DNA of 64,000 nucleotides from Closterium sp. NIES-65 (Eukaryota > Streptophyta > Zygnematophyceae > Desmidiales > Closteriaceae): positions 186,001 through 250,000 of the forward strand of contig CANXME010002053.1 of NCBI GenBank assembly GCA_948144175.1. The letters run 5' to 3'. Below, piece after piece: positions 31,136 through 57,950 of the stretch; the stretch's first letter is position 1; the number at the start of each line of letters is the position of its first letter. Below the pieces are notes generated by a model, which saw nothing but the letters and a program-made list of their open reading frames with translations, searched no databases and was not told the DNA's origin. The translations under genes and the position numbers were made by a program.

Positions 31136-34100
31136 ATGGCTTCCGAGCAGTCGCGCAGATCCGGGGCAATGGCCCAGGAGGAGGTGGAGCCTTACATGAA
31201 AAAGGAAGATCTAACACATGTGGGCATCGCTATTACCGTTTTTTTCCTGGTGTTCATCCCCTGCTTTTTTAACAACTACCATTGACATGTTTATTTATTT
31301 TGTGTTTGCAGAAGCATGCTGATCCCGCAGAGTACGAACAAGAGCAGACTTTGACGCAGAAGGGACAGGAGGTCACGGCGGCGAAAGGCAAGGAAGAACT
31401 CCCAGCATCGTAAGGCATTCGTTGATCCCAGCATCACGTGTTCAGCTCACGTCTTCGTAGTCGCCAATGGCGCGTCGTTGCCAACGGAAAACAGGACATA
31501 CCGGCACTAATTCTTGAGGTTTTGTCTTTATGGTCCTCCAGGCACGAAGACGCGCTGAAGCGCGGCGAGGAAGCTCTTACGAGCACCGAGGATTCCGCCT
31601 CGGGCGGCGGTTTTTTTGCGCCGCTGAAGAACCTCGCGTCGCGGTTCATGGGCCACGCGGCTCCAGAAACCGAGGGAGCTTTTCAGACTGGATTGGACAT
31701 TCCGATCTACACGCAGGATGAGCCGGCCGCTGGTGACGTGTCGACTGACAGCCAGGCTGCACGTGCCGGCCACGTGGACAAAGCGGAGCGTGGATCGACG
31801 ATCGAATTGGGTCAAGAGGAAGCTGTTGGGGAGTCGCCGCAGCAGGAGAGGGAGCGAAGTGCGGAGATGGCGAAGGAGAGTGCTAAGGAGGAAGCTCGTA
31901 AGGCGACCGACGAGGTGAAGGAGCATGCTGCGAGCGGATGGGACGCAGCGAGACGCGGCGTCGCGGAGACTACGGAGTCGATCAAGCAACCAGCGGCGCG
32001 CGAGTCGAGTGAGGATGTGAGCCGGAAAGCCAGCGAGGGTACTGCTGCGTCGGCGGAACGCGCTGCGCCAGTGGAGTCGCAGAAGGCGGCGGAAGGAGCA
32101 GCGGTGGCGGAGAGGAAAGCGGAAGATGCGCGTGCAGGTGCGGCGGCGGGGATTGAGGAGACGAAGGAGAAGGCGGTACAGGCGCGAGAGGAGGCGGGAA
32201 AGCAGGCGGAGGAAAGCGCGCAGGGAGTGAAGGAGATTGCGCAGGAGGCGCAGGCGGAGGCGCAAGCGGCGGGGGAGAAGGTGCAAGGGTCGTTCGACTC
32301 AATGGCTGAGCGCGCGCGCGGGGTGATGGAGCGCACGTTGGAAAGCATTCAGGAGACCGTCGAGGCCGCGCGCGAGCGGTCCGCACAGGCGGGGGAAACG
32401 GCGGAGCAGGCGGGCGAGACGGCGAAGGAGGCCGGGCGGGAGGCGTACGAGAAGGGGAAGGGGTTCGCAGCGGAGACAAAGGATGCGGCTGTGGTGAGCC
32501 TGGTGCCTTTTGTTTTTCTGTTATTTTTTATTCCCATATTTCCCTCTCCGTGTGCACAAAACTCGTGTTCGTGTCACACTGTCCTGGGGTTTTGACCCGT
32601 CAGTAAAGAGTGCGTGTTGATTCGAGATGCGTGTCCGTGCAAGGCGGTGCGTGAGTGAATTAGCGAGGCAGTATCTCGTGTTCACGTTCTTGCAGGAGAA
32701 CCTCGAGGCGGCGGGCACCGTCACGGCGAGAGGGCTGGGCAAGGCGGTGGGTACGGTGGAAGGAGCAGCAGAAGCGGTTGGCGAGAGTGCGCAGAAAGGG
32801 TACGTGAACACACATTCTATTTCCCTTTGCTCCACAAAATCGGCTTTCCTCGTTTTCCGTTAGGTTTAACGATGGGTTCGCTTTCCTTCTGCTTCGTGGG
32901 CATCCCACCCCTTTTCACCTCTTTATCTCTTTTCACCTCTTTATCTCTTTTCACCTCTTTATCTCTTTTCACCTCTTTCATCTCATTTCCCCGCGCTTTA
33001 AAGAGTATCCGCTGCAGCTGAGCGGACGGCAGAGGGCATTGAGTCTGCGCAGGAGGGCGCGCGCGGCGCGTACGACCGCACGGCGGAGAACGTATCCGCG
33101 TCTGCAGCTGGCGCGCGCGACCGCACGGCAGAAACCATCGAGTCCGCGCAGGAGGGCATTGCATCCGCAGAGGAGGGCGCAAAGGACGCGTACAACCGCA
33201 GGGCGGAAAACATCTCTGCCTCCGCCGCTGGTGCGCGCGACACTGGCGCAGTCGCGACGGGCACCGTCGCAGGCGCGGTTGGGCAGATCTTCCACTCGTT
33301 TGCGGAGGCGCTAGGCGTCGCGGGGAAGCACGCCCCGCCGGAGGCGCCAGTGGGGGAGGTGCCTTCGGCGGAAGCGTCAGCGGCGCATCGCCCGCTTTCT
33401 GCGGACGTGAAAAGTGGCGGAGAGCGTTCCGTCCCCCATGCGCCTGACCGCGCGCCTGCCAGCCTCTCCGCGCGCACATCCGCGGAAGGAGGTGGCCAGC
33501 ACGCGGGGGGAAGCGGGGCAGGCGGCGGAGGGGAAGCGGGGGAAGCGGAAAGGCACGCGGGGAAGGCAAGCTTTGGGGAGGAGGAGGGGGCAATAGAGCC
33601 GGGACTGGGCGGGGGTGTACGGTATCATCCTGAACCCAGCGCTGATCTCGGGGGGTCTGGTCTGAGTGCCATGTTTGCTGCTGGGAGCAAGGCGGATGTT
33701 CCACAGAACTACCCCCACGCTAGCCAGGAGACAGGCGAACAAGCGTCTAAACGAACTGCTGATGTTGGTGGTGGTGGTGAGAGTGGTTCCCGCGGTGCCG
33801 CAGAGGAATCTGGTCCTGGGCATGGTGGGGGTGATGGGACGGCGGCCACTGAGACAGCAGCAGGCAGGTCGGCAGTGAAATCGCCTTCATCAGATGAACG
33901 CGGCGTGTTTGGTGGAGGGGGTGTTCCTGGCGCCAAGAGCGTCCCGTGGGACCAGGTGAATGTGGGGGAAGGCGTGGATGAGAAAGGGGTGGACAGGAGG
34001 CAACAGGTGGAGATGCTTAAAGGGGGGGCGAGGGAGCTGCTCGGTAGAATCACAAAGGCTGTTATGGATAAGTCCGGGATTGAGACTGTGGAGCCAAAGA

Positions 34101-34513
34101 ATCGAATTGCAAAGGAGAATACCATGGCGCCGAAAATTGCCGGCCAGAGGGAGGAGCTGGGGATTGGCGGGGTGGCAGGTGAGGGAGGAAAGGGAGGAGG
34201 AGAGGAAGGAGAGGGGATGGCGGGAGGGGAAGGGGGAAGGGGAGGTGAAGGGGGAGAAGGAGGAGGGGGGTGGGTGAGTGATTTGGTAAATCGGGCGCAT
34301 ATGGGAGATTTGGTGGAGCAGGCGAAGGTGAGGCGGCAGAGTGTGAAGCATGCTGGGGTGTTGGAATCAGTTGCAACTGCTGCCGAGCATGTGAAGGATG
34401 CTATGGTGGGGAGGAGGGCTGTGGGAGGAGGGGAAGGGGATGTGGAGAGTGCCAAGATGGCTGATTCGGAACTGGGGAGGCTGGTAAAGGAAGCACAGCT
34501 GAAGGAGCAGTAG
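31136..34513 (+). CDS. Large LEA-like (group 3/LEA_4 type) protein, five exons
   Basis: Exons 31136-31219, 31312-31409, 31542-32493, 32696-32799 and 33004-34513; 2748 nt, 915 codons, all junctions GT-AG with matching phase. ATG 31136 begins MASEQSRRSG. The product is very hydrophilic, rich in Ala, Glu, Lys and Gly. The middle has repeated amphipathic 11-residue-like units (ETAEQAGETAKEAGREAYEKGK; ESIQETVEAARERS), typical of group 3 LEA proteins, which protect membranes and proteins on drying, salt or cold. Exon 5 adds a longer repeat with IESAQEG and GAYDRTAENVSASAAGARD (two to three copies at about 33020-33250), then a Gly-rich tail. No signal peptide is evident. It is far longer than most LEA proteins. 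I cannot exclude another helical stress or lipid-droplet-associated protein. Confidence 0.7.
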
Positions 34514-35052: not shown

Positions 35053-35194
35053 GGTGCAGCTACTGTTGGAAACAGTGTGCGGGAAGGGGAAGGATGATAT
35101 GTTACTGTGTTTGATTTGTTGTGTAATGTACTGTATATAATGTACATAATTTCTTTCTGATATTATTTCCTACTCTAGCTTCACTGTATCTGTG

Positions 35195-35520
35195 TGTAAG
35201 GAATTTTCTCGGCATTCCTTACGGGGCCGACTACATCGCGTACAGCAACAGCCGATTGTTCGCCCGTTACTGCTAACGAAACTTCGCCGACTTCGCGCGC
35301 ACTGTTTTGCCAAACCTCGCACTGCTGGCATGGCCGTATCGGCCTACGCTTCGGGACTAGCCCGAGCCTCGCTCCAGCGTAGCACTAGCAAGCTCGCACG
35401 CACCGCGTTACCGTTTGCATGTTTCGCGTATAAATGTTCGCTCATGCCTTCGCTCACATTTTGTACTCGTTTGACACCTTAGTGCAATTCTCGCTACCTC
35501 GATTCATTGCACCCGTAACA
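35195..35520 (+). repeat. GYP1 5' LTR (326 bp)
   Basis: It begins TGTAAGGAATTTTC and ends CCCGTAACA. A TATA box TATAAAT lies at 35429-35435, about 90 bp before the LTR end. Confidence 0.94.
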
Positions 35521-35522
35521 CT

Positions 35523-35537
35523 TGGTTATCAGAGCCC
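35523..35537 (+). other. GYP1 primer binding site
   Basis: TGGTTATCAGAGCCC lies two bases after the LTR, a variant of the initiator-Met tRNA primer site. Confidence 0.75.
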
Positions 35538-35703
35538 CTTTCTTTCGGACCGCGCATCTCCGCACACCAGGAAATCAACTTTTGATTTTTCACTCGAAGG
35601 GACTCACGCACCTTAGCCCCTGGGAGCCGCTGTCCTCGCGTTCTCTCGTAAACGCGTGCAGCCACGACTGCGCCTAGACTAAGACGAGCCGACGCCCTTC
35701 GTC

Positions 35704-36873
35704 ATGGCTGAAAATATCGACGTCACCACCCTCACGCAGGAGCGTTTGAACGATCTGCTGCGACAGCTGCACGAAAGCTCCGAGGAAATCGCGGCATTAA
35801 CGGCAGAACGCTCATCGCTGCAAAATGACCTCATGAAGGCACAACAAGCACAATCTCAAGCACCTGGCACTCCGATTCAACCTGCACCCTCAACATCACA
35901 ACACGGGAGTGTGGGGCAACCCGCGAGCGCGGCCAGTGAGGGCGTCGTCCGCCCCGACGGAGACGACGACCACGGCACGACACACCCCAGAGCGACGCAT
36001 GCGGCCCCAAGTCAGCCTCGCGTCACGATTTCGGCACCAACCCACGATTCGGGACTGCCGTCACCGATGCCGCTGAAGCCGCAGCGCCCGCCATGCTTTG
36101 ACCCGAGTCAACGGGGTGGTCCTACCGTTCAGGCGTGGTTGTTCACAATGAATGTCTTCTTCGACGCCAACTACGTCTCGGAGGACTCGGCGAAGATTCG
36201 ATACGCCGTGTCGTTGCTGCGAGGACCCGCCATGGACTGGTGGCGCGTCATCGTCACGAAGCCGACCGACTACGCGACACTACCGACACGGGAAGGACAA
36301 ACCGGACCCTGGGCGCCGTCGTATTTCGTGGAGGTGCCCCAGTATCGCACGTGGGACGCGTGGTGCGCAGGTCTGCGCGCTCGATTTGAGCCAATCGCAG
36401 CCTCGATCTCGGCGCGACAGAAGCTCCGCACTTGGCGCCAACTCGGTTCCGTCCAGGATTACACGAGCGGATTTCTGGAGCTATGCGAGCAGGTGGGCTA
36501 CATGCATGAGAGCGAACGCATCGACCGCTACATCGGCGGCCTGAAGCAGGACATCGCTCAGGAAATCCAGCTTCGCGGCGTCACTGAGTTTCAGGAAATT
36601 CTCGCTATGGCGGAGAAGCTCGACTTCTTTCGCCGACCGAGACCGGGGTCCTACGGAAACAACACCTGGGGACATCGGCCTCGTGGGACGAACGAGAGCG
36701 CCACGATACGCGCCGTCGCCGCAAATGCCGCTGCCGCACCGTTCAAAGGGCGCTGCTTTGCGTGCAATCGGCCGGGACATCGCAAGAGCGAATGCCCGGA
36801 AAACGCTAAGGGAAAGGGGGAAGCTGAGCAGCAGACACAGACCAAGCAGCAGGGAAACGCTGGAAGTCAGTAG
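35704..36873 (+). CDS. GYP1 Gag (capsid and nucleocapsid)
   Basis: 389 codons from ATG 35704 to TAG 36871. An N-terminal Leu-rich helix (LNDLLRQLHESSEEIAALTAERSS) is followed by a Pro/Ser linker and the retrotransposon capsid domain (VQAWLFTMNVFFD, RGPAMDWWRVI, LRTWRQLGSVQDYTSGF). A CCHC zinc knuckle CFACNRPGHRKSEC lies near 36754-36795. The tail is Lys/Gln-rich. It would form virus-like particles and package the RNA. The frame ends 12 bases after a slippery heptamer. Confidence 0.92.
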   Translation: MAENIDVTTLTQERLNDLLRQLHESSEEIAALTAERSSLQNDLMKAQQAQSQAPGTPIQPAPSTSQHGSVGQPASAASEGVVRPDGDDDHGTTHPRATHAAPSQPRVTISAPTHDSGLPSPMPLKPQRPPCFDPSQRGGPTVQAWLFTMNVFFDANYVSEDSAKIRYAVSLLRGPAMDWWRVIVTKPTDYATLPTREGQTGPWAPSYFVEVPQYRTWDAWCAGLRARFEPIAASISARQKLRTWRQLGSVQDYTSGFLELCEQVGYMHESERIDRYIGGLKQDIAQEIQLRGVTEFQEILAMAEKLDFFRRPRPGSYGNNTWGHRPRGTNESATIRAVAANAAAAPFKGRCFACNRPGHRKSECPENAKGKGEAEQQTQTKQQGNAGSQ

Positions 36874-36893
36874 CAGACGGGCCCTCTACTGAC
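36852..36893 (+). promoter_or_regulatory. Probable -1 ribosomal frameshift signal between gag and pol
   Basis: G GGA AAC at 36852-36858 is a canonical X XXY YYZ slippery heptamer and lies in the correct phase for the gag frame. Seven bases later comes a perfect 8-bp stem: GTCAGTAG (36866-36873) pairs with CTACTGAC (36886-36893) around a 12-base loop; the gag stop lies inside the left arm. After a -1 slip the frame stays open through 36930 into protease. No ATG starts pol nearby. Confidence 0.75.
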
Positions 36894-36932
36894 AGGTCAC
36901 GCCGCTCGCCCGACCCAACCGACCCTCACCGA

Positions 36933-39900
36933 GTGATTGTGCCGGTTCACGCAATCGACCACACCCGGCCGAATAAGGAGGGTACCACGGTAGACAGCCC
37001 TATACTGCTCAGTGGGAAAATGGGGACGGACTTAGTTAAAATCTTCGTAGACGGGGGAGCCAGCCACAGCCTCATTAACACTGCTACAGCACGAAAACTG
37101 CGACTGCCACTGGACAGATGCTTACCTGAGATCGACGCACGACTGGTAGACGGCACGCCGCTGGCGATACGGGAACGCGTAAACCGAGTTCGGATTCGAT
37201 GCGGGGGTAACTTCACGTTTAGTCAGGAAATGCTTGCAACGACCCTCGACGGAACCGACATTTTACTCGGGCGTGATTGGCTGCGACGACACAATCCGCG
37301 AATTGACTGGACGACGGGTGACTGCACCGTGCGAGTAAACGGTAACAACATCGCCTTACCTCGCTGGGGCTCGCCTGAGTCTTCGTCGGTGCGTGTCAAT
37401 GCGATCACGATGAAACGCGCTGTTGCGGCCGGAGCCGACGTGTACGCGGTTGACATTCGGGAAGCCGAGGCAGCAGACAAGGGGGGCGATTTACAGAAGC
37501 TGCTGACCGACGTACCGAGTGACCTGGCGGCACTGTTAAAACAGTACAGTGACATTTTCCCGGGCGACCTGCCGACGGGACTGTCACCTCAGCGACCGCA
37601 CGATCACAGGATAGAACTGGAACCGGGGGCACAGCCAACAGTACAGCGACAGTTCAGACTGACCCAACCCGAACTAGACGAACTAAGGAAGCAGCTCGAT
37701 TACCTGCTCGAGAAAAAATTCATTCGCCCTAGCTCGTCGCCCTTCGCCGCACCAATACTGTTCACACCGAAAAAGGACGGGGGGTTTCGGATGTGTATCG
37801 ACTACAGGGCACTGAACAGGGTTACCATCAAATCCCGTTACCCCATCCCACGAGCCGACGAACTGATCGACCAACTGCGCACAGCCCGGGTTTTCTCGAA
37901 AATCGACCTCCGAGGAGGCTACCACCAAATCCGCGTCAACCCACCCGACTGCCCTAAAACCGCATTCCGAACACGCTACGGATCCTTCGAATACACCGTC
38001 ATGCCATTCGGACTGACCAACGCCCCCGCCATTTTCCAAATGACCATGAACGAAGCATTCCGCCCACTTTTAGATAAGTGCGTCATCGTTTATCTGGACG
38101 ACATACTGATTTACAGCCCTGACAGAGCACAGCACTTACAAGACATCGAAGCAGTTTTTAAAATCCTGAGTGAGAACCGCCTACTGACCAAAGCATCTAA
38201 GTGTGAGTTTTTACAGGACCGCCTGGAGTTTTTGGGACATGTTATTTCAGCTGCAGAAGTGGAAATAGACCCGAAGAAAATTGCGACGATTCAGGCTTGG
38301 CACGCGCCGACCAACTTGACCGAGTTGCAGAGTTTCCTGGGGTTCGTCAACTACGTGCGCCGGTTCGTCCCCGACATGGCGAAGCTGACTGCCCCGTTGA
38401 CCAACCTGCTGAGGAAGGGGGTTGAGTACACGTGGAGGGAGAAAGAGCAAGCTGCCTTCTCGGCCCTCAAAAATATTTTGTGCTCCCCGCCCGTCCTTCA
38501 CATTGCAGATCCCCACCGTCCGTTCGAGCTCGTCACCGACGCAAGTGATATCGCTGTGGGAGCAGTACTGTTGCAGGACTTCGGGAACGGCCTCCAGCCA
38601 ATCGCGTACGAATCCCGCAAGTTACACCCGCCCGAACGCAACTACCCGATACACGACCGCGAAATGCTGGCGATCGTGCACGCGTTCAAAGTTTGGCGGT
38701 GTTACCTGACTGGCGCCGACGTGACAGTACGGACAGACCACCGTTCACTACAGTACCTTCGCGCCCAACCGAATCTCAACCCACGACAGATTCGCTGGTT
38801 GGACTATCTCGAGTCCAATTTTCACTACACCGTCACGTACAAAAAAGGAGCATCCAACATCGCCGACGCTCTCACCCGCCCCACCGCCCAACTCCACGCC
38901 ATCCTACTCGCCCAGACCAACCCACTTTTAACTGGCCTATTCACCCACGGATACCGCACCGACCCATTTTTCACGACCGGAAATTCACAGCAACTAGCAG
39001 AAGCAAAAGGAGTCTATTACGTAAAAACAGGCACCAACCGCATTTGGGTACCCGCGTACTCACTACTGAGGGAGCTGCTACTGCAGGAGGCACACGACGG
39101 GATTACCTCGGGACATTTCGGGGTAGAAAAAACGCGACAGCAACTGCAGCGGTATTATTACTGGCCGGAGCTGTTGACCGACGTACAGCAGCACGTGGGC
39201 TCGTGCCCGACGTGTCAGGTGATGAAGAGTTCAAGGAAGCGGAAGGCGGGTCAATTGCAGCCGATCCCACCGCCCGAACGCGCCTGGCAGCAAGTAACCA
39301 TGGACTTCGTCACAGGGTTACCTTCGAACCCTGGGGGTAACGACGCGGTGATGGTCGTCGTGGATAGGCTGACGAAGATGGCACACTTCGCTGCGTGCAA
39401 AAAGTCGATCTCAGCCGAGGAGACCGCTCGCCTGTTCATCGCAGCCGTTGTTCGCCTGCACGGGATACCAGCAGCAATTATCAGCGACAGGGACACGAAG
39501 TTTACCAGCAACTTCTGGAAGAACCTCTGGGAGCAGTTCGGGACCAGGCTACAGTTCAGTTCGTCGTACCACCCCGAGACCGACGGCCAAACGGAGCGGA
39601 CGAATCAGACGATGGAGCAGTTGATTCGTGCCACGTGCGACGACCCCACGACCTGGGAGCAGCAGCTGCCGCTGATCGAGTTCGCGTACAACAACGCCAC
39701 ATCAGCCACGACGCAGCAGTCCCCGTTCTACCTGAACTATGGGCAAAACCCCACAGTGCCCATGACGCCGAGTCCGGACAACCCAACGCCACGTGCACAA
39801 CAATTCGCCGAAGTCCTGCACGCTGCCCGCGCCAGAGCCGCCGAAGCAATAAAAAAGGCCAACGTCATCGCTAAGCGCAACGCTGATCGCCACCGCCGTC

Positions 39901-40361
39901 CTGTCACGTACCAATCTGGAGATTACGTGCTGCTTGACAAGCAAAATCTGCGACTGCCCGACGTACCAAAATTACGACCGCGCTACTGTGGACCATTCCA
40001 AATCAGTCACATGATCACACCCGTCACCGCGCACCTACTGTTGCCAACCGACTGGTACATCAGCCCTTCGTTCCACGTCAGCCTACTTCGCCCATACATC
40101 CCGACCACAAGTCAACTGCCGCGTCACCGGCCACAATCAATGACTCGCCCTGCATCAGAGCCGATCATCGAGCCCGACAAAATTCTGAGCCATCGGATCC
40201 GCCACCCCACGGGAATCAGGAGGATTGAATTCCTCGTTCGCTGGAAAGACCGCACGCCAACTGAAGATAGCTGGGTGCCCCTGAGCAACATCGAAAATCA
40301 CCCTGCCCTGCAAGTGTACCTGAGGAGCCGGGGATTCCGCGATATACACGCACTCGCGTAG
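36933..40361 (+). CDS. GYP1 Pol: protease, RT, RNase H, integrase, chromodomain
   Basis: 1142 codons listed from a GTG at 36933, but the frame is open back into gag and is probably entered by -1 frameshift. Order: protease (IFVDGGASHSLINT, near residue 40), reverse transcriptase (GFRMCIDYRALN; YLDDILIYS near residue 386), RNase H (LVTDASDIAVGAVL; RTDHRSLQYL), integrase HHCC finger (HDGITSGHFGVEKT to CPTCQ), and integrase core (TMDFVTGLP, IISDRDTKFTS, HPETDGQTERTNQ). The C-terminus has GPFQISHM, SPSFHVSLLRPY and a chromodomain (EPDKILSHRI, IEFLVRWKDR, EDSWVPLSNI). Chromodomains direct integration to marked chromatin. No stop or frameshift is visible. Confidence 0.95.
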   Translation: MIVPVHAIDHTRPNKEGTTVDSPILLSGKMGTDLVKIFVDGGASHSLINTATARKLRLPLDRCLPEIDARLVDGTPLAIRERVNRVRIRCGGNFTFSQEMLATTLDGTDILLGRDWLRRHNPRIDWTTGDCTVRVNGNNIALPRWGSPESSSVRVNAITMKRAVAAGADVYAVDIREAEAADKGGDLQKLLTDVPSDLAALLKQYSDIFPGDLPTGLSPQRPHDHRIELEPGAQPTVQRQFRLTQPELDELRKQLDYLLEKKFIRPSSSPFAAPILFTPKKDGGFRMCIDYRALNRVTIKSRYPIPRADELIDQLRTARVFSKIDLRGGYHQIRVNPPDCPKTAFRTRYGSFEYTVMPFGLTNAPAIFQMTMNEAFRPLLDKCVIVYLDDILIYSPDRAQHLQDIEAVFKILSENRLLTKASKCEFLQDRLEFLGHVISAAEVEIDPKKIATIQAWHAPTNLTELQSFLGFVNYVRRFVPDMAKLTAPLTNLLRKGVEYTWREKEQAAFSALKNILCSPPVLHIADPHRPFELVTDASDIAVGAVLLQDFGNGLQPIAYESRKLHPPERNYPIHDREMLAIVHAFKVWRCYLTGADVTVRTDHRSLQYLRAQPNLNPRQIRWLDYLESNFHYTVTYKKGASNIADALTRPTAQLHAILLAQTNPLLTGLFTHGYRTDPFFTTGNSQQLAEAKGVYYVKTGTNRIWVPAYSLLRELLLQEAHDGITSGHFGVEKTRQQLQRYYYWPELLTDVQQHVGSCPTCQVMKSSRKRKAGQLQPIPPPERAWQQVTMDFVTGLPSNPGGNDAVMVVVDRLTKMAHFAACKKSISAEETARLFIAAVVRLHGIPAAIISDRDTKFTSNFWKNLWEQFGTRLQFSSSYHPETDGQTERTNQTMEQLIRATCDDPTTWEQQLPLIEFAYNNATSATTQQSPFYLNYGQNPTVPMTPSPDNPTPRAQQFAEVLHAARARAAEAIKKANVIAKRNADRHRRPVTYQSGDYVLLDKQNLRLPDVPKLRPRYCGPFQISHMITPVTAHLLLPTDWYISPSFHVSLLRPYIPTTSQLPRHRPQSMTRPASEPIIEPDKILSHRIRHPTGIRRIEFLVRWKDRTPTEDSWVPLSNIENHPALQVYLRSRGFRDIHALA

Positions 40362-40372
40362 CGGAGGGGGCT

Positions 40373-40390
40373 TCTTAAGGGGGGGGGTAG
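40373..40390 (+). other. GYP1 polypurine tract region
   Basis: AAGGGGGGGGTAG directly precedes the 3' LTR and is the expected plus-strand primer. Confidence 0.75.
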
Positions 40391-40716
40391 TGTAAGGAAT
40401 TTTCTCGGCATTCCTTACGGGGCCGACTACATCGCGTACAGCAACAGCCGATTGTTCGCCCGTTACTGCTAACGGAACTTCGCCGACTTCGCGCGCACTG
40501 TTTTGCCAAACCTCGCACTGCTGGCATGGCCGTATCGGCCTACGCTTCGGGACTAGCCCGAGCCTCGCTCCAGCGTAGCACTAGCAAGCTCGCACGCACC
40601 GCGTTACCGTTTGCATGTTTCGCGTATAAATGTTCGCTCATGCCTTCGCTCACATTTTGTACTCGTTTGACACCTTAGTGCAATTCTCGCTACCTCGATT
40701 CATTGCACCCGTAACA
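40391..40716 (+). repeat. GYP1 3' LTR (326 bp)
   Basis: Same as the 5' LTR but for one base; followed by the CTGTG duplication. Confidence 0.94.
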
Positions 40717-41333: not shown

Positions 41334-43680
41334 CTACTCAGGAAAGGCAGCCGGCTTCTCTTGTTTTGAGTCGACTCGAAATTCTGCCCGGGGGACAAAA
41401 CGGGCGCTGCATGCTGCACCATGCTCCCCTCCATTTGCATCCATGCTCCCCTCCATTTGCATCGGGTCAGAGGTCATCTCAGGAGAAAAAGCAGGAGCCA
41501 AACGGTGCACTGAGCCGCTCCTCCTTCCCCTCTCGCTCCCCCTTCTCCACCTCCCCCACCTCTCCCGCCTCCAGCACCCCCTCCCGCTCATCCTCCATCG
41601 CTTCACCCCTGCCATGTCCTGTGAAAGCACAGCACCCGGCGGCACCCCTTTCGCCTGTGTGAGACGAGCTGATTCCAGAGTTGGTGCAGCACCCCCACTT
41701 CCCTCTGCATGTCTCTGAACGTCACATGTGCCTCTCCGCCCCTCGCCAGAGTTCTCCCCCCACAGCACCCCTCCCTCCTCCTTTCTTCCCACGCGTCCCT
41801 CGCCCTGATGACCCGCGCTACGTTCCAACGTGCCACGCTCGGGCGGCGGCCGCCCAGCGGCGCGAACAAACATGTGGCAGCTTCTTTCTTCTGATTGGCC
41901 ATCATGATGCCGCTGCCACTCCTGCCGTCCATGAGCAACACGTGTAAAAAGACAACTCGGACCCTCCTGCTGTCCCTCCTGCTGCCACTCCTGCTGCTCC
42001 TTCTGCCGCCCGCGGGCGGCACGCATGAGGGGCGGGCCGTACAGGATCTGCCACGTGCGGTGGGCGTCGAGGATCACCGCTCCCGCTTTCCGGGAAGCTT
42101 CTTCCTGCCAGCTGACGCGCAGTCCGCTTCCGCTACTGAAGCAGCAGCAGTGCTCGTTCGGGTCATCTCGAGAGGATGTACTCGCTGTGCTGCAGCCTGC
42201 TGACGTCACGTCAGTGCAGCAGCCTGGTGATACCTCGGTTGTGCAGCAGCCTGGTGACGTCAGCATCTCTCCGGGGAAGGGGGCTGTGAAGTGTGCTGCC
42301 TCGGCCCACCTATAAACAGCAGGGAGCAGCTTTCGGGAAACTTCCTCGAGTTTTCCTGCAAGGACAAGTTGGTCGTCTGCAGCTATCACGAGCAGCTTCC
42401 AGGAAACCTCCAAGCCAGAGTCAGCCTCACGCGGGTTCCACTCACCCATTTCCTCCTCCTCCTCACTAACTTCTCTCGCTGCTCCTCCCCTTCCGTCCCC
42501 CCTTCCCCCACGTCCCTCTCCTCCACCCGATATTCTCCCCCACCCTCTCCCCGCCCTTACCCCGGCGCCTCCCCCGCGCAGTCTGACGGGCAGCGCCAGC
42601 AGCGGAACAACGGAGTAAACCTCTCCGCACTGTCTCCGCCTGCCCCCCACCTCCACGGCTTCCAATGGCGCGTCGTCGAGAATCTCCGGGAACGGCTCCT
42701 TTAACCTACCGTTATCTACAAACCCGGAGTCCGCGCTATAGGGTTTCAGCTCCGCAGTCCGTCGCGGAAAGTCCGTTGGAATGACTCCGAGCACGCACGT
42801 CTGCGGGATAATCCCAAGGTTCCACGGACACGCTTGCGCGACTGACGCGGAAGGACACGCCTGCGCGACTGACGCGGAAGGACACGCCTGCGCGACTGAC
42901 GCGGAAGGACACGCCTGCGCGAATGACGCGGAAGGACACGATCTGGACCTGGCGCCAGTTCGCTCGGCGGACGTGCGGTCGTGTGAGCACGCGCCGGACG
43001 CGCATCCTTCACGTGAGCGCGGGTCGGAAGGTGGGGAGGTGCAGACGAATGTGAATTCGGCGGTTGTCGTTGTTGATGACGTTGACGTTGACGGTGGTGA
43101 GCAGAACCCGCGGCTGCTTCCGAAGAGGGATGTGGTAGAGCTAGGAATGCGCGTTTCGCTAAACGAGCGTGGTAGCGAGGTTGATTTTAGCGAGAATGAA
43201 GCGGGCGACGCAATAGCCGGCGGATTGTTGCTAGTAGCAGTATTTGTGGCTGTAGGAGGTAAGGACGCGGACCGCAGTAGTGGAGTCCCAGCCACGCAAT
43301 CGGAAGAAATCGGCACGTCGTGCCAGATCGATGCCACGTCATAGCCCGATCCGATCAACGCCGGCAGGCGGTTCCAGTTAGTGGGCGCCGCCGCTCCGGT
43401 GTCGGCAGCCAGCGGCGACGCTGCGAGACTAGGACTCGGAATGAGATATTCTCCTGGAGGCGCGCTCGAAGTACACTTCGAAATAGAACATGGCGGCTCG
43501 CTTGAATCAGGGCTTGGAGAGAAGTTTCTTCTGGTGTTTGTTGCTGATAATGCGGTGCAGACTGAGGTGGAATCACTAGTCTTGCTCGAAAAGCAACGCG
43601 TGTTGCTTGCTCCGCGCGATGCGCCATAAATTCTCGACGGACCGTGGAGAAGTTTCGATTTCCTGCCGTAGACTGTGCTG

Positions 43681-43718
<38 letters not shown>

Positions 43719-43820
43719 GCTGGAAGTGTTGCTGCACTTATCGTTTTTCCTGCCGCCATAGTTTCTGACGCTCCCAGAAGCAGTGGATACTATTCGCCAC
43801 AGTATGGTGATTAGCGCCAT
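41334..43820 (-). CDS. Inorganic pyrophosphatase-like protein with long inserts, probably inactive
   Basis: First in-frame ATG is at 43820; 828 codons in one exon, though hidden introns are possible in the Gly/Glu-rich parts. Blocks collinear with eukaryotic-type family I soluble pyrophosphatase: IWHDVPI (residue ~165; enzyme PWHDIPL), EFTFVCTS (~255; NFIVEIP), WNLGIIPQTCV (~333; WNYGLLPQTWE), DDAPLEAVEVG (~382; DNDPVDVVEIG), YSVVPLLALPVRL (~402), SWKLLVIAADD (~473; DWKIVAISLDD) and DAHRTWQIL (~585; ETNESWAKL). In the metal-binding motif the second and third Asp are Ala and Glu, and the Asp before WK is Ser, so catalysis is unlikely. Four tandem 9-residue repeats ACPSASVAQ (27-bp units, about 42826-42940) precede WNLG. 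The C-terminal 200 residues are low-complexity and may not all be translated. Confidence 0.68.
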
Positions 43821-44993
43821 TCGCGGGTGTCTGAAACCAGATTTCGAATCCCTCTCAGGACAGATTTTTTCTGAAATTTCCGTGTGCCGCGCATGTATCA
43901 CCCCGTGTCACATTGTGCGGCATGGCGCAATGAGAAACTAGTAGCTATTGATCGGCGCTCGGCGGCGAGAGTCAGGTACGTTTTTTCGAGACGCGAGACA
44001 TGAAGTATGCCAGGCCGCCCGCCAGCGTAAAAATTATTTTGCTTCATCTCCCGTTGCTTGCTGGCGGTAATAACGCGTGGCGCAAAGGTTCCACAGGTGA
44101 AGTGTCGGTGGAACTGGCACAACTCGAAAGCTAGGTTACTGGAGGTGAAAGTGGCAGTGAAGCAGCAAAAACAGAAACATTTGCAGCTTTCGTCAACAGA
44201 AATGTGAAGCAGCTTTCGCAGGCGAAGAGGTTGCTCACATTTGCCTGCTTTCAGAAACATTTTCCCGTCCAACTTTCCGTCAACGAATGCCTGTTTCATT
44301 TGCATGATGTGCTGGGAGCGGGCAGCTTGGATTTGCCAAGGACCGTTCTGATGCCAGGTAGGAGAAGCTGATGCTGCATGAAGCAAGCTGCTAAGGGAAC
44401 ATCCAAGTGTTGGGAGTTGGCGGACGGAAATGTGCGTCGCCATCGGGCCGCATCTCATCGTGGAATTCAGCCGAACCGCGAATTGCCTTCGCCACCAATG
44501 GCTGGCAAGCAACCAGGCCACCTACCGTGCTCTTGGGCCATCAATACAATAGCAGTCAGGTCAACTTGTACATGACATAGAAACACTATGGTTAAGATAG
44601 CTTAGTTAACTGTCAAAAACATGTTAGATATTTACACCAGATACATGCTGATGTCATACCGTACCTATCAACAAATCAGATGCCTCAATCAACGCCAGAA
44701 GCTGCTTTTCCCACCATTTCCTGTAACGGCTGCTGCAGCACCTCCAGTTCTCCCCCCAACTTTTTATGCCCTTCAACAATCACTAATAGCAGCAGCCGAA
44801 CCAGCGGCGATCGCCGCTGATAGCAGAGTCTGGAGGCACTGACTCATCCATATACACAGAAATGCCAATCTCTTATGTCTTGAACATAGTCCTCCCCATT
44901 GCAACCGCTACAACCCATCTCCCCATCACCCCACTGTGACTCGTGGCTGCTACACCCAAAGCTGAACTTCTCACACCATCCCACTTAATAAAA
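43821..44993. other. Gap between the two pyrophosphatase-like genes
   Basis: A 207-codon minus-strand open frame (43898-44521) has no recognisable domain and ordinary composition. I treat it as unproven; it may be leader sequence of the downstream gene. The rest shows no gene. Confidence 0.4.
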
Positions 44994-47900
44994 TCACCAC
45001 GCATTCTCTCCCAAACCCTCACCCATCCTCAACCAACCAGTCACAGCACCACCGTCCACCCCTCGCACCATTCCCACACTCTCTCCATCATTCCTAGACA
45101 CCAACAGGGTAGAAGACGAGTTAAATCCTTCTGGCCATCCACGCTCCCTCCCATTCCTTGATCGCAGCTCGCGTGGGCTTGGGGAAATGGACCGGGCCTG
45201 ACTCAGCGTCCTGTTGTGATTTTGAGCGGTGGAGAGCGGTGCAAGGTTGCCAGTGGAGCGGTTCTGAGCGGTGGAGAGCGGTGCAAGGTTGTCACTGGAA
45301 AATGACTTTGGCACAGAGCGACCCGAGCGGGGGGTTGCAACGGTGCCACCCCCAGACGAGGGTTTAAAGCCAGAGAAAGCAGAGTCAGAAGCCCGGGGTG
45401 GGCGGGGCGAGAGGGGTGAGAGGGGTGAGAGGGGCGAGAGGGAAGAGCCGGGTGAGAGGGGCGGGAGGTACGGGTTGTGTGGGAGGCACACAGCATGAGG
45501 GCGGGAACTGGGAGAAGGAAGAGAGGAGCGATTGGCAGGAGAAGAAAGAGAGGCGGCAGCAGCGCTGCTGGCAGTGGTGCTCCCGTTGCTTGGTCGAGCA
45601 AGCACCTGCTGTGCTCTTGCCTGTGGTGAAAGCACCCGGGGATGGTGCACCTCTGGAAGCACTCCTGCTGTGCTTTCGACTGCTGTGACTGCTTGGGCTG
45701 CTACCGCTGCTAGGGGTGCTTTGCCGGCGACAGCAGTGAGCTGCCTGGACAGCCGCCACGGAGCATCCTTGGCAGCAATAACGGTGAAGCCTTTAGCGGA
45801 TGGCATGCTCATCGACGGTCGGATCTTCTTCCCCTCGTTGCCCTTCCCTTGGCTGCCCTTCCCCTCGTTGCCCTTCCCTTGGCTGCCCTTCCCCTCGTTG
45901 CCCTTCCCTTGGCTGCCCTTCCCCTCGTTGCCCTTCCCTTGGCTGCCCTTCCCCTCACTGACCTTCCCTGTGCCCCCGCCCTGTGACTGAGTCTGCCTAC
46001 TCGTGCTGCTGTGCGTTGCTGCAGCCTTCATCCGCCTTGTTTCTTCCCCTGCCTTGCCCATGATGTCACCGTTGCTGCTGCTCCTACTGCTGCTCTTGCC
46101 GCTGCTCTTGCTGCGGCTCTTACCACTGCTCCTGCTGCCTTTACTATTGCTCTCCTTGCCACCAGGACTGCTCTCCTTGGCCTCCTGACTCGAGAAGCTC
46201 CCACCACCAGCACCAGAGTCATTCCCAGAAGGGGTGTCACCAGAACAGTTGGCACAAGACAGGCTGTCACCAGGATTCGACAACCTGGCAGAAGAAGTAG
46301 CAGCAGCAACGGCACGAGCAACAGACTGTCTGGGAGCGACCAGGGCAGCAGCGGCAGCCGCTTCGGCAGCCGCCTCAGCAGCAGCGGAAGCCGCAGCGGC
46401 TGCAGCTGCTGCCTCTTTTGGTTGTGAATAGCACACAGCAGCAGCTGCAGCGGCGGCGGCAGCAGCAGCAGCAGCTGTTGAAGCAGACACAGCAGCAGCA
46501 ACAGCCGAGAGTGCCGCTGCATATGCGTCATCAGGATCCACGTGGGATTCGCTTAGAGCCCTCATTAGCAGCTCACTGGCACTGACTTTCCTGTCATCCT
46601 TATAAACATCCTCGGTAGGAGCACTTGTGTCTGAATTGCTCCATCCATGGTAACTTGGCTTGGCAGAAGGTTTGGCAAGAGGCTCAGCACAAGGCTCGGG
46701 AAAGCGTTGAGGCTTGGCCCATTCCACTATGGACAGGTCTTGGCTGGATCCCCACCCGTCCCGAGCCGCACACCCCCTCACCCCGGGAAACTCCCGAGAA
46801 AAGTCCTTTCTCACCCTCTCTGCCTCTTCAGTGCTCTCTGCTTCGGCCGTCCGGGGCCGTTCGGGCTGAGAGCTGTGAGGGCGAGATAGTGTGCGGTTAG
46901 GAGCGGTGGGAGCATGGCGGGCGGTCTGGGGGGTGGGAGGCCAGTGAGCCTTGGGAGCCTCTCGGGCAGTCTGGGGAGTGGCAGGCCAGCTGGTCTTGGG
47001 CGCCTCGCGACAGCTGGCAAGCGCCAGGTCAGCGCTCTCGGAGAATTTGGACGGGATGATGATGCTGTACCGGAAACTCTTCTTGCCCACTGCGCCGCCC
47101 GCTACGCTGCTGCCGCCCGCTGAGGTGGCGCTGCCGTCTGCGCTGGTACTGTTATTGATACTGCTGCCCTCCTGCACCTTCTCCTCCACTTCCTCACCCT
47201 CCTCCTCCATTTCCTCCTCCTGCCCACCACCCACTTCCTTCTCCCCCTCCCCATCCACACACTCATGCCTCGTCTCTGCTCTCTCTCTGCCTGACCGCTG
47301 CTGCTCCTCCTCCAACCTTTCATCGCCTTGAGTTTGAGTCCCCTCCTCTTCCACTTCGCCTTTCTCCCCCACTTTCCCGACCGGTGCCGGAACTTTCAAA
47401 CGCGGAAGCAAGCGGGCAATTGCTCGAACTTTCCCAGTCCTTTCCATCCATAAATTCCTCCCTATGCTCCTAGGCGTGTCCGTGTTAGTGTTAACTTTAC
47501 CTCCGCTATTACTGCTGCTGTTACTGCCAACCATGCTACTATTAGTGCTATTTAGGCGGTTGCTGCTGCCTGGTAACTCCAGCCCTGAGCTCCTCCGTAC
47601 AATATCACCGCTCATTAGAATCGCACTCCTATCGATCCCATATGCGTTTGCGTTTTCTTTAACAACAGAGTTCGTATAAATAGCAGCTGCTTCACTGTAG
47701 TCCCTTTTATTCATTGTTGTAACGGTATGCCTTCTCAGCAGCTCCATCGGCCTCGGGCTGTCCTCACCCTCGCTATTGTCACCATCACCACCGCCACCAG
47801 AACCCTCATCGCCGCCGCCGGAGCAGAATCCTTTTCCTTCCTTATTGTCACACAGATTGCCCAAACGACCACCACTGGTTTTGCCGAACCCCCCGCTCCT

Positions 47901-50566
47901 CCCCTCTCCCCCGTTTCTCTCCTCCCTCGCCCACCACCGCCCACTGATAGCACCACCACCCAACCTGTTGCCGTTATTTTTAGCACCGCGTTTCTGCACA
48001 ATACATGACGATCCGATAGTGGCGCTTCGCCGTAGGTCCAAGAACATGGGCAGCGGCGCGTCTAGAATTTCGTTCAGTAGCGCCGCCGCAGCTTCTGACG
48101 TGGACGAATCCTCCTGCGACGTGCATGTCAAGGATGGGACGTTTCGGGTGGGGACAAGGGAAATGGTGCGGAAGCTGGCGCGTCCCACGCTGGCGGAAGC
48201 AGCGCTTGCTGAAGTCGCACTGGCGGAAGTTGCGCCGGCGAAAGTTGCGCTGGCGGGATATTTTAAGCCAGGGCGTGGAGACGGGAACACGGAGTGCGGG
48301 GAAAGACAGGGGGAAAGTTCGCCGGTGCTGCTCGGAGCGGCGTCGAACCGGCGCCAGCTGTCGCCACTAGTGCTGCCGCTGCTGCTGCAACTGCCGCTCT
48401 GTTCGCATGGTAACACAGGAGTTTCGCAGTTTTTCGCACAGCTGCCGCCGCTGCCGACGGTATAGCTCCGTTCGCCACCCCACGAACCGCGGCGATTATG
48501 GCCTCTGACGCTGCTACCGGAAACATTACGCGTCGCAGCACCACTCGAGGAAGCATTCACGTGAGCGACAGCCACTGCCGCAGCCGCCTCGAGACGGCAA
48601 CGACACCCGTTATTAGGCTCGGTAATCGAAGCGGCGGAGGTGGCGGAAGTTGCGGAAAGCGCGCGCGACCTGCTACGAGCTACTTTTTCCGCTTCCTTCC
48701 CAAATCGAGGGATAAGTAGCCACACAGAGTTACCACCACTTCCCGCGTCGCCCTTTCGAAACACCTCCTCCTCAGAATCTTTCGCAGCTTTCCAAACTGG
48801 TTCGCTAAACTTCTCGTCTGCCTCGGCGGAAAAACCGCTGCTGGTAACAGAGCCGATATAGCCGAACCTTCTGCTTCTTAAGAGAGTTGGCTTTTGGGTT
48901 GTTGACTTTTGAGTCGACTCAAAATCCAACTCGGAAAAGCCGCTGCTGCTACTAATAGTGCCGGTAGAGCCGAGCCTTCCGCTTCTTAAACTGGTTGCGA
49001 AGCTTACCTTACGCTTGCTGCTGCTGCCTTTTGCGGCTGATTCGCTACTGAGCGTCGCGTTGTTGAAACAGTTGAGGATCTTATCTCGCTCTTGCCACGC
49101 TGGCAGCGCGTGCGCGTGCACGTGGCCTCTCCGTTGCAAGGTAGGCCGGCGGAGCGCGCTTCCGAGAACCTTCCACGTGTAGTGCGACTCGGTGATCACG
49201 GCGCGCGCCTTCTGAGCAGCTTCGTCCCACAAGCACGACACATCAGGAGATGAGAGAGGGTCGCGCGACGGGCTAGCAGGCGAAGGCTTTTTTTCTGCTT
49301 GGGGAACGGAAAAGGGCGAAGGAGAAAGGAAGAAGGGGAGAGGGGGAAGGAGGAAAGGTTAGGGGAAAGGGGAAGGGGAAGGGAAAGGGGAAGCTATGCG
49401 GACAAAGGGAACGGATTGGGCACAGGGAGTGGTCACACCGCCGTCGCCGTGAAGGCATCGCGACGTCAAGAGAGGAAGAATTGGCGGTCTCGCTGCTAGA
49501 AGTAGTACCATCATGTCCTTAACTTTGCCGCGAACTCCCTAAACTCTTGATAAGGGGGAAAAGGATATATATTGCTACAGTGTGGCCGAACGAACTCACC
49601 CCGTCTTGACGATTCCCTTTGCGGACGTGGCGGCGACGCGAAACCCGACTCGCGAACCCATCTCCGCACCATCGGCAGAAGCTTCCGCGAAACCACGTCC
49701 ATCCGCCGGGCAGCAACCAACGGGTCATCGATCGCGATAACCACCAGTTTCCACGAAACTTCCGAGCGCGTCTCGTTGTGAAGCCGCACAGGCAGCGCGA
49801 GGAGCGGAAGCACCGGGTACGCCTCCCCGGGTTCGCGCTGCCGCGCGCCAACTTCTACCGCTTCGATCGGCGCGTTGTCGAAAATCACGGGGAAAGCCGA
49901 GTCGCCAGACTCGCGCGGCGATCCAGGACCTGCGGAAGCTGCTAACGGGGACGACGGCGGTGAGTCGTTGGCGTCTGTCGCGACATCTGACGGCTGAGAA
50001 GCGATGGGGGAGAGAACGCACGTCTGAGGCATGATTCCTAGATTCCATGGGCGCGGCGCGGAGTCGTCGGGGCTCAAAGAGCCGTCTAGGTCGAGCCGCT
50101 GGCAAGGCAAGGCGGGACGCGACGAGCGGGGAGAAAGCGAGTCGGGAGAAAGCGAACGGGGAGAGGTGGAAATCTGAGTTTCGCTCTTAAAATTTACTAG
50201 GCTGTTTTTCCGATTCGAACGAGCGCTCTGAGGGAAATGTCTTCCGCCGCGATTAGCGGCGTGATCCGCGCTGGCGGTTTTTGAGGAGGTGCAGACGAAG
50301 GTGAACGCAGAAAGTGACACGTAATTATCGTTCGCCACATACCTCCCCCCAAAATCGTGGCTCTCAGTTTCCGCGGCTGGTGATGGAAAGAGCAATTCGT
50401 TAGCACTAGCAGCTAGAAACGCGGAATCCTGCAAACGCGGAGAGGATGATTGCGACAATTGCGGCGGCGTGAGCAGCACGTCGTGCCAGATGGATGCCAC
50501 GTGTCCGGCTTGGATTAGAGGAAGGAGGTTGCCAGTTGGTAGCTTCGGAAAGGCAGGTAAAATCAT
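44994..50566 (-). CDS. Pyrophosphatase-like domain fused to a very long low-complexity tail
   Basis: Two exons: 50566-49600 and 49294-44994, 5268 nt, 1755 codons. The intron runs from CGGG/GTGAGTTCG to CCAAGCAG/AAAA (phase 1), and splicing restores the domain: exon 1 holds IWHDVLL (26), FTFVCTS (89), WNLGIMPQTCV (174), DNAPIEAVEVG (230), LPLLALPVRL (253), SWKLVVIAIDD (271) and VVSRKLLPMVRRW (291); exon 2 adds the final helix AVITESHYTWKVLG (352). As in the neighbouring paralogue, active-site Asp residues are replaced (D-N-A-P-I-E; Ser before WK). The remaining 1390 residues are Ser/Gly/Glu-rich with poly-Ala blocks, KGSQGKGNEG repeats and Ser-Pro-Leu runs, apparently disordered. An upstream exon is possible. 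It is probably a tandem duplicate of the gene at 41334-43820. Confidence 0.68.
45838..45957 (-). repeat. 30-bp tandem repeat inside the long tail
   Basis: Four near-identical 30-bp units with core CTTGGCTGCCCTTCCCCTCG encode the ten-residue repeat GKGSQGKGNE on the minus strand. The period is a multiple of three, so the array has been kept in frame. Confidence 0.85.
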
Positions 50567-57310: not shown

Positions 57311-57950
57311 CTGGTGGCGCTGCGCGGCCGAGGCCGTACTTCGTTCCGCTCCTGGAGCAGGTTCTTGGTCTCTCGCCCTCTACTAGTTCTGCTCGTCCCT
57401 TGGAGTGTCCTCAGCTTGTCCAGTCGCAGTCTGAGTTACAGCCCGACTCCCCCCTACCTGCTCCTTCTCTCTACACTGGTCCTACTAGAGGTCTTGCTGA
57501 GCGTCGTGAGCCTGCGTCTTGTCCTGCGTCGCATGTTCGTGCTGCTCACGCTAGTGGTCGTACTGCGCGTCTGCGTCCTCCTGCGGTCCGAGGCACACAC
57601 CAGATGGCGCTGCGTCCTTCCACTGCTCCTCTGCGTGTCCCGTTGCCGTCTCCTCTAGAGTCCTCTCTTCCTACTCTTGCTGACCCGAGTCTGACTCTCT
57701 TCGTGCTGCCAGTCCTTCTATCACGCGTCTCCTGGCTACTGTTGTCACTGACCCTTCCTTTGAGTCCACTGCTGCGTTTGCCCTAGTTACTGAGCTTGTC
57801 GACTTTGCTGCTCGCTGTCGTCTAGACTACGCTGCTAGTCTAGTTGCTGGGTCTGAGTCTGTCTGTCCTCCGTCCGTCGGGGGTGAGTGTGCTCTTAGCA
57901 CGGACGTCCTTGAGGACAGGCAGGAGGAGTTCCAGTGCTTTGCTGCTGCT

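What the first reader, a model, noticed from the sequence alone, without database searches (positions are those of the whole stretch)
41334..50566. Tandem pair of pyrophosphatase-like genes that appear to be pseudoenzymes with giant disordered extensions
Both minus-strand products share at least seven collinear blocks with eukaryotic-type family I inorganic pyrophosphatase (IWHDV, FTFVCTS, WNLGIxPQTCV, D[DN]AP[LI]EAVEVG, PLLALPVRL, SWKLxVIA.DD, [DE][AS]HxTWx[IV]L). In both, the metal-binding D-x-D-P-x-D motif reads D-x-A-P-x-E and the Asp before W-K is Ser. The same losses in two otherwise diverged paralogues, with the hydrophobic framework kept, suggest the fold is selected without catalysis. 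Inserts of 50-100 residues sit between blocks and one copy has a tail of about 1390 residues. I know of no described family of this architecture. The fold match and residue losses are seen; the loss of activity and a regulatory or scaffold role are inference.
Basis: partly seen in the sequence, partly recalled or inferred. Interest (0 to 1): 0.85.

Follow-up and report, generated by a model that had tools for sequence, protein, structure and literature searches.

The report
Algal pseudo-pyrophosphatase family with long tails
Two neighbouring genes in a green alga related to land plants carry the shape-forming core of the enzyme pyrophosphatase without its catalytic residues, and they belong to a large, apparently undescribed gene family in that genome, several of whose members carry very long floppy tails, which suggests that an everyday enzyme was turned into a non-enzymatic interaction part.

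Summary
The window is from Closterium (probably NIES-65). Both products are diverged eukaryotic-type family I pyrophosphatases (PPases): a profile of 12 intermediate paralogues from the same genome, built without the window's group, picks only these two of 550 window ORFs (E 6e-22, 3e-18; next 0.19). Pfam and PDB matches alone are weak. The catalytic losses are family-wide: in 29 rows Glu48, Tyr93, Asp117 and Asp152 are never kept, Asp120 once; a multi-exon PPase with these residues intact is in the same genome. Pseudo-PPases form one clade against two catalytic rows and were found at 53 places of a duplicated assembly, 37 of them read. Copy 1 is insecure: one 'insert' may be an intron and its duplicate is broken. 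Best reading: a non-catalytic barrel used as an interaction module with a disordered, perhaps phospho-regulated tail; that role is inference. New variant of a known kind.

The parts
49600..50566 (-). Copy 2, exon 1: start codon to the end of the barrel (pseudo-PPase core). Contains IWHDV (50477-50491), D-N-A-P-I-E in place of D-x-D-P-x-D (49862-49879) and S-W-K in place of D-W-K (49748-49756).
   Evidence: profile hit 6.2e-22; 80% identity over 322 aa to P0005
49295..49599 (-). Copy 2 intron (GT..AG, 305 nt), between the barrel and the C-terminal helix
   Evidence: Spliced frame intact; spliced readings of P0001 and P0005; same length and no differences in the segmental duplicate
44994..49294 (-). 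Copy 2, exon 2: C-terminal PPase helix (DEAAQKARAVITESHYTWKVL), the LRRPTLQRR motif, then a Ser/Ala/Gly-rich tail to the stop
   Evidence: FAM profile hit 4.8e-15 at its start; tail matches P0001 at 67% over 114 and 79% over 103 residues; 3 of 3 indels against the duplicate are multiples of 3 and no stop arises, but two of the three are changes in tandem repeats whose unit is itself a multiple of 3
41334..43907 (-). Copy 1 ORF (857 aa, stop to stop) with the PPase blocks: IWHDV (43314-43328), D-D-A-P-L-E (42660-42677), S-W-K (42396-42404)
   Evidence: profile hits 3.2e-18 and 7e-38. ORF broken in the duplicate on C1798
42408..42560 (-). Possible in-frame intron of copy 1 (GTAAGG .. CTGAC .. 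TTGGAG, 153 nt), read by the first stage as a protein insert
   Evidence: removal leaves 6 residues between PVRL and VSWK where the other 7 rows of the window group's alignment have 7. Against: an in-frame insert at this place in C1872
42826..42940 (-). 27-bp tandem repeat (4.3 copies) coding for ACPSASVAQ repeats in the copy 1 linker between FVCTS and WNLG

Best explanation
The two genes are members of a large Closterium family of non-catalytic (pseudo-) inorganic pyrophosphatases that descends from a eukaryotic-type family I PPase, probably the plastid-type enzyme. SHOWN by sequence: homology, family-wide loss of metal-binding and general-base residues, one clade against the two catalytic rows used, few and only synonymous changes in the core of copy 2, and a long tail frame that stays open. 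INFERRED: the barrel, which can no longer bind the metal ions and activate water, is kept as a folded interaction module. It anchors a long, probably disordered tail whose short motifs (basic-Ser/Thr sites such as RS[KR]T[DE]P and LTRRWS in sister groups) are phosphorylated and bound by partners, so that the protein works as a phospho-regulated scaffold or adaptor. PPi hydrolysis is left to the intact PPase encoded elsewhere in the genome. Cell location was not tested. My confidence is about 0.9 for the identity and loss of catalysis and about 0.35 for the scaffold or adaptor role.
For: Homology: DIV profile 6.2e-22 and 3.2e-18, only 2 of 550 ORFs below 0.19; the same profile matches yeast PPase at 4.9e-44. 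Residues: of 29 pseudo rows (some are orthologues from different strains, so not independent) E48 is kept in 0 of 28 with a letter there, Y93 0 of 29, D117 0 of 29, D152 0 of 29, D120 1 of 29, D147 3 of 29, D115 25 of 29, K154 19 of 29; the Closterium plastid-type PPase keeps 12 of 13. Asp117 is the residue that activates water in yeast PPase (PMC11210485, passages). One clade, 100/99. Selection. Architecture: 1030-1303 aa single ORFs with the same core in this genome and 1115-1248 aa models in three other strains. Motif islands: 6 in the tails of groups B, C1 and C2, 0 in each of 8 shuffles. In the group B tails of three strains [RK]Sx[ST] and PxxP exceed shuffles (for P0010 11 against 3.7 and 16 against 3.2).
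Against: No expression, structure or binding data. AlphaFold2 gave no confident model. In the copy 2 tail replacement changes run at the neutral rate (17 against 3 synonymous; p 0.44 for neutrality); two of its three in-frame indels are repeat-unit changes; RSxTxP is absent from it and RxxS/T is not enriched (25 against 21.5), so motif-based scaffolding is weaker for copy 2 than for groups B and C. Other duplicate pairs show no clear selection: group B core 1 synonymous and 1 replacement, tail 4 and 5; group C1 core 0 and 1, tail 1 and 0. Between groups the core ratio is moderate (B-C1 dN 0.30, dS 0.64). Two of the six motif islands are Ala- or Ser/His-rich. Copy 1 is broken in its duplicate. 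Asp115 and Lys154 are often kept, so some ligand binding is not excluded.
Confidence: 0.55

Rival explanations
1. Decaying duplicates: the pair are pseudogenes or relics whose frames are still open by chance, with no present function.
For: Copy 1's duplicate has a 1-nt frameshift, a TGA and a 22-nt gap; the copy 2 tail shows neutral replacement rates; one sister locus (C2, L048) has its first block in another frame; other duplicate pairs show too few changes to prove selection.
Against: Copy 2 core 3 synonymous and 0 replacement changes; the 4.3-kb exon 2 stays open in the duplicate; pN/pS 0.29 between the copies in the blocks; members with the same blocks in five Closterium genomes: Naga37s-1, Yama58-4, NIES-53, NIES-68 and this one.
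Confidence: 0.15
2. A regulatory subunit of the true PPase: the pseudo-barrel forms mixed dimers with the catalytic enzyme and tunes or places it.
For: Eukaryotic family I PPases are dimers (PMC11210485, passages); an intact plastid-type PPase is encoded in the same genome; pseudoenzyme-enzyme pairing is a common pattern (recalled).
Against: The clade has dozens of places against one multi-exon eukaryotic-type PPase gene at two places with equal scores; the yeast segment E48-W52 that lies near the dimer contact (recalled) is not kept; the branch to the window group is long (1.44 changes per column).
Confidence: 0.15
3. A re-tooled ligand-binding or enzymatic domain: Asp115 and Lys154 are kept with new neighbours and the barrel binds or processes another phosphate compound.
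For: D115 25 of 29 and K154 19 of 29 kept; D120 to E is common.
Against: E48, Y93, D117 and D152 lost in all rows with a letter there, K56 in 24 of 28, Y192 in 27 and K193 in 28 of 29; by eye no new invariant cluster of charged residues stands out in alignment A4.
Confidence: 0.13

Closest known systems
Eukaryotic-type family I inorganic pyrophosphatase (yeast IPP1, PDB 1e6a; plastid-type plant enzyme)
   Same: Order of the blocks from IWHD to the C-terminal helix; D115 and often K154
   Different: E48, Y93, D117, D152 and nearly always D120 lost; copy 2 below and copy 1 without a PF00719 match; long inserts and tails; barrel in one ORF, whereas the plastid-type gene is split over several
NURF-38, a PPase that is a structural subunit of the Drosophila NURF chromatin remodeller
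   Same: A PPase-family protein used as a complex subunit (PMC2705796, passages, with the title of its reference 50)
   Different: NURF-38 is an ordinary PPase by sequence and activity (recalled); no family expansion or giant tail known to me
Pseudoenzymes in general (pseudokinases, pseudophosphatases)
   Same: Loss of catalytic residues with the fold kept, beside active relatives
   Different: I saw no described pseudoenzyme family built on the family I PPase fold in the listings of five searches, which cover open-licence papers only

Membership tests
Family I inorganic pyrophosphatase (catalytic) | Sequence homology over the PPase domain | tested here: met
   Intermediate-paralogue profile 6.2e-22 and 3.2e-18; PDB profile search 7.1e-05, 20 of 21 listed sequences named as PPases and the other matching yeast PPase; hhalign to yeast PPase P 3.7e-05, probability 71%
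Family I inorganic pyrophosphatase (catalytic) | PF00719 curated cut-off | tested here: not met
   Copy 2 18.6 bits against 23.5; copy 1 none
Family I inorganic pyrophosphatase (catalytic) | Metal and catalytic residues (E48, Y93, D115, D117, D120, D152, yeast numbering) | tested here: not met
   Both copies keep only D115 of these six
Family I inorganic pyrophosphatase (catalytic) | Five-stranded barrel fold | tested here: inconclusive
   AlphaFold2 pLDDT 33 and 34 with 7 and 10 sequences; no fold search run on such models
Family I inorganic pyrophosphatase (catalytic) | Hydrolysis of PPi | not testable with these tools
   Needs an assay
Pseudoenzyme | Homologue of an enzyme with catalytic residues lost across relatives | tested here: met
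   29 of 29 rows lack D117 and D152; 16 of the 53 places were not read
Pseudoenzyme | Kept by selection as a protein | tested here: met
   For copy 2 only and on small numbers: core 3 synonymous, 0 replacement. For copy 1 only its old divergence from copy 2 speaks for it
Pseudoenzyme | Expressed protein without activity | not testable with these tools
   No transcript or protein data

The most novel reading that the evidence does not exclude
A family I PPase, probably the plastid-type enzyme, gave rise once, perhaps through a reverse-transcribed copy, to a pseudoenzyme lineage in Closterium that grew to dozens of genes. Its members use the dead barrel as a docking module on long disordered tails with 14-3-3-like and basic-kinase motifs: a lineage-specific network of phospho-regulated scaffolds made from a housekeeping enzyme.
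Probability: 0.33. Interest if true: 0.85.

Novelty: new variant of a known kind. Interest (0 to 1): 0.72.

Why it matters
Soluble pyrophosphatase is a highly conserved housekeeping enzyme, and I saw no described pseudoenzyme family on its fold. A large family in a close algal relative of land plants, with many degrees of change beside an intact enzyme, lets one test how an enzyme fold becomes a non-catalytic module and what its tails bind. It also warns that PPase-like genes in such genomes should not be annotated as enzymes from a Pfam hit alone: 18 of the 22 PF00719 matches in this genome are not at the canonical PPase genes, and the 14 of these 18 that were read lack Asp117 and Asp152.

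Tried and rejected
Structure prediction of P0002 with 7 and then 10 aligned sequences gave pLDDT 33.3 and 34.3, so no fold search was run. A scan of bacterial and archaeal genomes for eukaryotic-type PPases with the yeast sequence found none. The idea that the protein is a fusion of an inositol 5-phosphatase-C2 enzyme with a PPase-like domain (P0005) was judged a probable gene-model merge: 5-phosphatase-C2 models that end without it exist in Naga37s-1 and NIES-64, and a partial one in NIES-65, and that part is not found in the window. Enrichment of RxxS/T in the copy 2 tail was not found (25 seen, 21.5 in shuffles). A first motif-island scan with a stricter filter showed two islands; the finer filter, chosen afterwards, showed six, against 0 in each of 8 shuffles. 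pN/pS of the B, C1 and C2 tails is below 1 but depends on uncertain alignment, and the C2 core there includes a stretch in a shifted frame. Rows left out of the 29-row residue count: P0001, P0003 and P0004 (truncated or oddly spliced models), near-identical duplicates of fetched loci, the broken copy L052, and the 16 of 53 places that were never read (12 found with copy 2, 4 found with PF00719).
Full report
Where the window lies. The nearest database proteins are from Closterium, a zygnematophycean alga. The window is G000:C1755:186001-250000 of an 874 Mb, 2400-contig assembly. NIES-65 is listed at 876 Mb (PMC10407611, abstract and one results section read). A NIES-65 protein (P0008) has 3,172,135 bases as its longest contig, the length of C1798 in this assembly. 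I therefore take the strain to be NIES-65; this is inference.

Gene structure. Copy 2 reads from the ATG at 50566 through 49600, then over a 305-nt GT..AG intron to 49294 and on to a stop at 44994: 1755 aa with no internal stop. The spliced sequence agrees with models from Naga37s-1 (P0001) and Yama58-4 (P0005). Copy 1 is one ORF of 857 aa. Against that, the diverged paralogue C1872 has an in-frame insert of about 40 residues at the same place.

Is it a pyrophosphatase fold by sequence? Taken alone the evidence is modest: PF00719 at 18.6 bits for copy 2 and nothing for copy 1; PDB phmmer 0.0034 for copy 2 and no PPase for copy 1. A profile of eight Closterium members reaches 7.1e-05 in the PDB; 20 of the 21 listed sequences are named as PPases and the other, 4qlz, matches yeast PPase at 6.7e-98. 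The decisive step came from the host genome: PF00719 gives 22 matches over its cut-off. Four of these are the multi-exon plastid-type PPase (two places) and a cytosolic, plant-type PPase (two matches); from the other 18 places 12 distinct diverged genes were read. A profile of these 12, without the window's group, matches yeast PPase at 4.9e-44 and, of 550 window ORFs, only copy 2 (6.2e-22) and copy 1 (3.2e-18) clearly; the next is 0.19, and the best shuffled or reversed ORF is 0.025.

Catalytic residues. Aligned to yeast PPase, 29 pseudo rows (12 diverged genes, 10 rows of the window's group including both copies and five from other strains, 7 further loci) keep E48 in 0 of 28 (one gap), Y93 in 0 of 29, D117 in 0 of 29, D152 in 0 of 29, D120 in 1, D147 in 3, K56 in 4 of 28, E58 in 9 of 28, R78 in 4 of 17 (12 gaps), Y192 in 2, K193 in 1, D115 in 25 and K154 in 19. 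Orthologous rows are not independent. The Closterium plastid-type PPase keeps 12 of these 13; at the thirteenth, R78, the alignment puts Y, but the exon reads KGKIRYY, so I think it is misplaced by one. Asp117 is described as the residue that, with two metal ions, activates the attacking water in yeast PPase, and Asp115, Asp120, Asp152, Tyr93 and Lys56 are shown as active-site residues (PMC11210485, passages only). 'Plastid-type' and 'cytosolic' are my labels from recalled plant sequences.

Family. In a tree of 24 rows all 22 pseudo rows form one clade (100/99) apart from yeast and the plastid-type PPase, and the window group is a sub-clade (100/100). There are only two catalytic rows, three rows have long end branches, and the programme warns of long-branch joins. 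A search with copy 2 gives 61 matches. Together, and leaving out the canonical PPases, I count 53 places (list). Of these 37 were read and 16 were not; many are segmental duplicates, some unread ones are weak (to 6.2e-4), and one (C570) lies at a contig end with a broken frame, so the number of genes is smaller and not settled. In 4 of the 12 diverged genes the C-terminal helix is found by score in a separate downstream ORF (C2346, C365, C128, C1834), by eye in three more (C2139, C1724, C105), and in the same ORF in two (C1255, C1673); copy 2's intron has the corresponding position. The helix-bearing downstream ORFs run from 105 to 676 aa, stop to stop. Sister groups B, C1 and C2 in this genome are single ORFs of 1303, 1030 and 1179 aa; C2 has its first block in another frame. 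Three protein searches, each scoring about 8000 candidates, found relatives of the window's group only in Closterium, apart from one unnamed JGI 5-phosphatase-C2 protein (P0013) that shares only the merged part of P0005. The wider family was not searched in other species.

Selection and coding status. Between the two copies, 130 codons of the blocks give pN/pS 0.29 (bootstrap 0.21-0.39), dN 0.23 and dS 1.82, near saturation; the blocks were chosen for similarity. A segmental duplicate of the region lies at C1798:1547976-1553491 for copy 2, with copy 1 beside it. In copy 2 the core (403 codons) has 3 synonymous and 0 replacement differences and the tail (1353 codons) 3 and 17; the tail's ratio does not differ from neutral (p 0.44). 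No stop arises, and the three indels are 9, 6 and 60 nt; the 60-nt and 9-nt ones lie in tandem repeats with units that are multiples of 3, so they would keep frame anyway. By hand, the chance that all three core changes fall among the 6 synonymous of 23 is about 0.011. Of the tandem-repeat rows in exon 2, 15 of 15 have periods that are multiples of three; in the copy 1 ORF 5 of 6, the exception being a 22-bp repeat near its end. Duplicate pairs of sister groups have too few changes to tell: B core 1 synonymous and 1 replacement, tail 4 and 5; C1 core 0 and 1, tail 1 and 0, no gaps. Between groups B and C1 the core gives dN 0.30 and dS 0.64. Copy 1 against its duplicate: 1-nt gap near codon 316, TGC to TGA in the original frame near codon 564, 22-nt gap near codon 815. 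The stop lies where other members have an intron, and a 1-nt gap may be an assembly error, so copy 1 may be living or decaying.

Tails. Alignment of groups B, C1 and C2 shows six islands of conserved residues in the tails, among them W[AG]GL..F.S.P, RS[KR]T[DE]P and L[TN]RRWS, against 0 in each of 8 shuffled sets; two of the six are Ala- or Ser/His-rich. RSxTxP fits the recalled mode-1 14-3-3 site. The copy 2 tail lacks RSxTxP; there PxxP (12 against 4.9) and, less so, [RK]Sx[ST] (10 against 5.7) exceed shuffles, while RxxS/T does not.

What is in print. Searches for Closterium with inorganic pyrophosphatase, pyrophosphatase with pseudoenzyme and family I, inactive pyrophosphatase terms, Closterium with pyrophosphatase and genome and soluble PPase in streptophytes gave, in the listings, no paper on such a family; only open-licence papers are held. 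The Zygnema genome paper notes that gene families specific to Zygnematophyceae are enriched for the term 'pyrophosphatase activity' among others (PMC11096116, passage); that term can also cover NTPases (recalled), so it is only a lead.

Verdict. The mechanism (dead barrel as interaction module on a phospho-regulated disordered tail) is the best guess, not shown.

Noticed in passing
window 35194-40689: A Ty3-type LTR retrotransposon with a chromodomain (pol ORF 36828-40361) and two identical 300-nt direct repeats at its ends. Homology of the region with its segmental duplicate starts at about 40717, so it probably inserted after the duplication.
   Followed up: partly
window 19057-21018 and 57684-59138: Copia-type retroelement pieces: RVT_2 at 57684-59138, Pol_BBD plus Retrotran_gag_2 (the latter below its cut-off) at 19057-21018. 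Other ORFs look alike by eye.
   Followed up: no
window 11884-12558 (-): A DDE_Tnp_4 transposase ORF, Harbinger-like by recall.
   Followed up: no
window 31426-34513 (+): Long charged Ala/Glu/Lys-rich ORFs resembling LEA-type proteins by eye; Pfam gives only a sub-cut-off apolipoprotein match for the first and none for the second.
   Followed up: no
   Followed up: partly
L018 (G000:C1673:1435000-1444000): A pseudo-PPase member within a very long ORF (1836 aa in the fetched piece; 2211 aa), with an insert of over 100 residues between PPase blocks.
   Followed up: no
L052 (G000:C570:84200-90224): A third copy of group B at a contig end, spread over several frames, possibly poor assembly.
   Followed up: no
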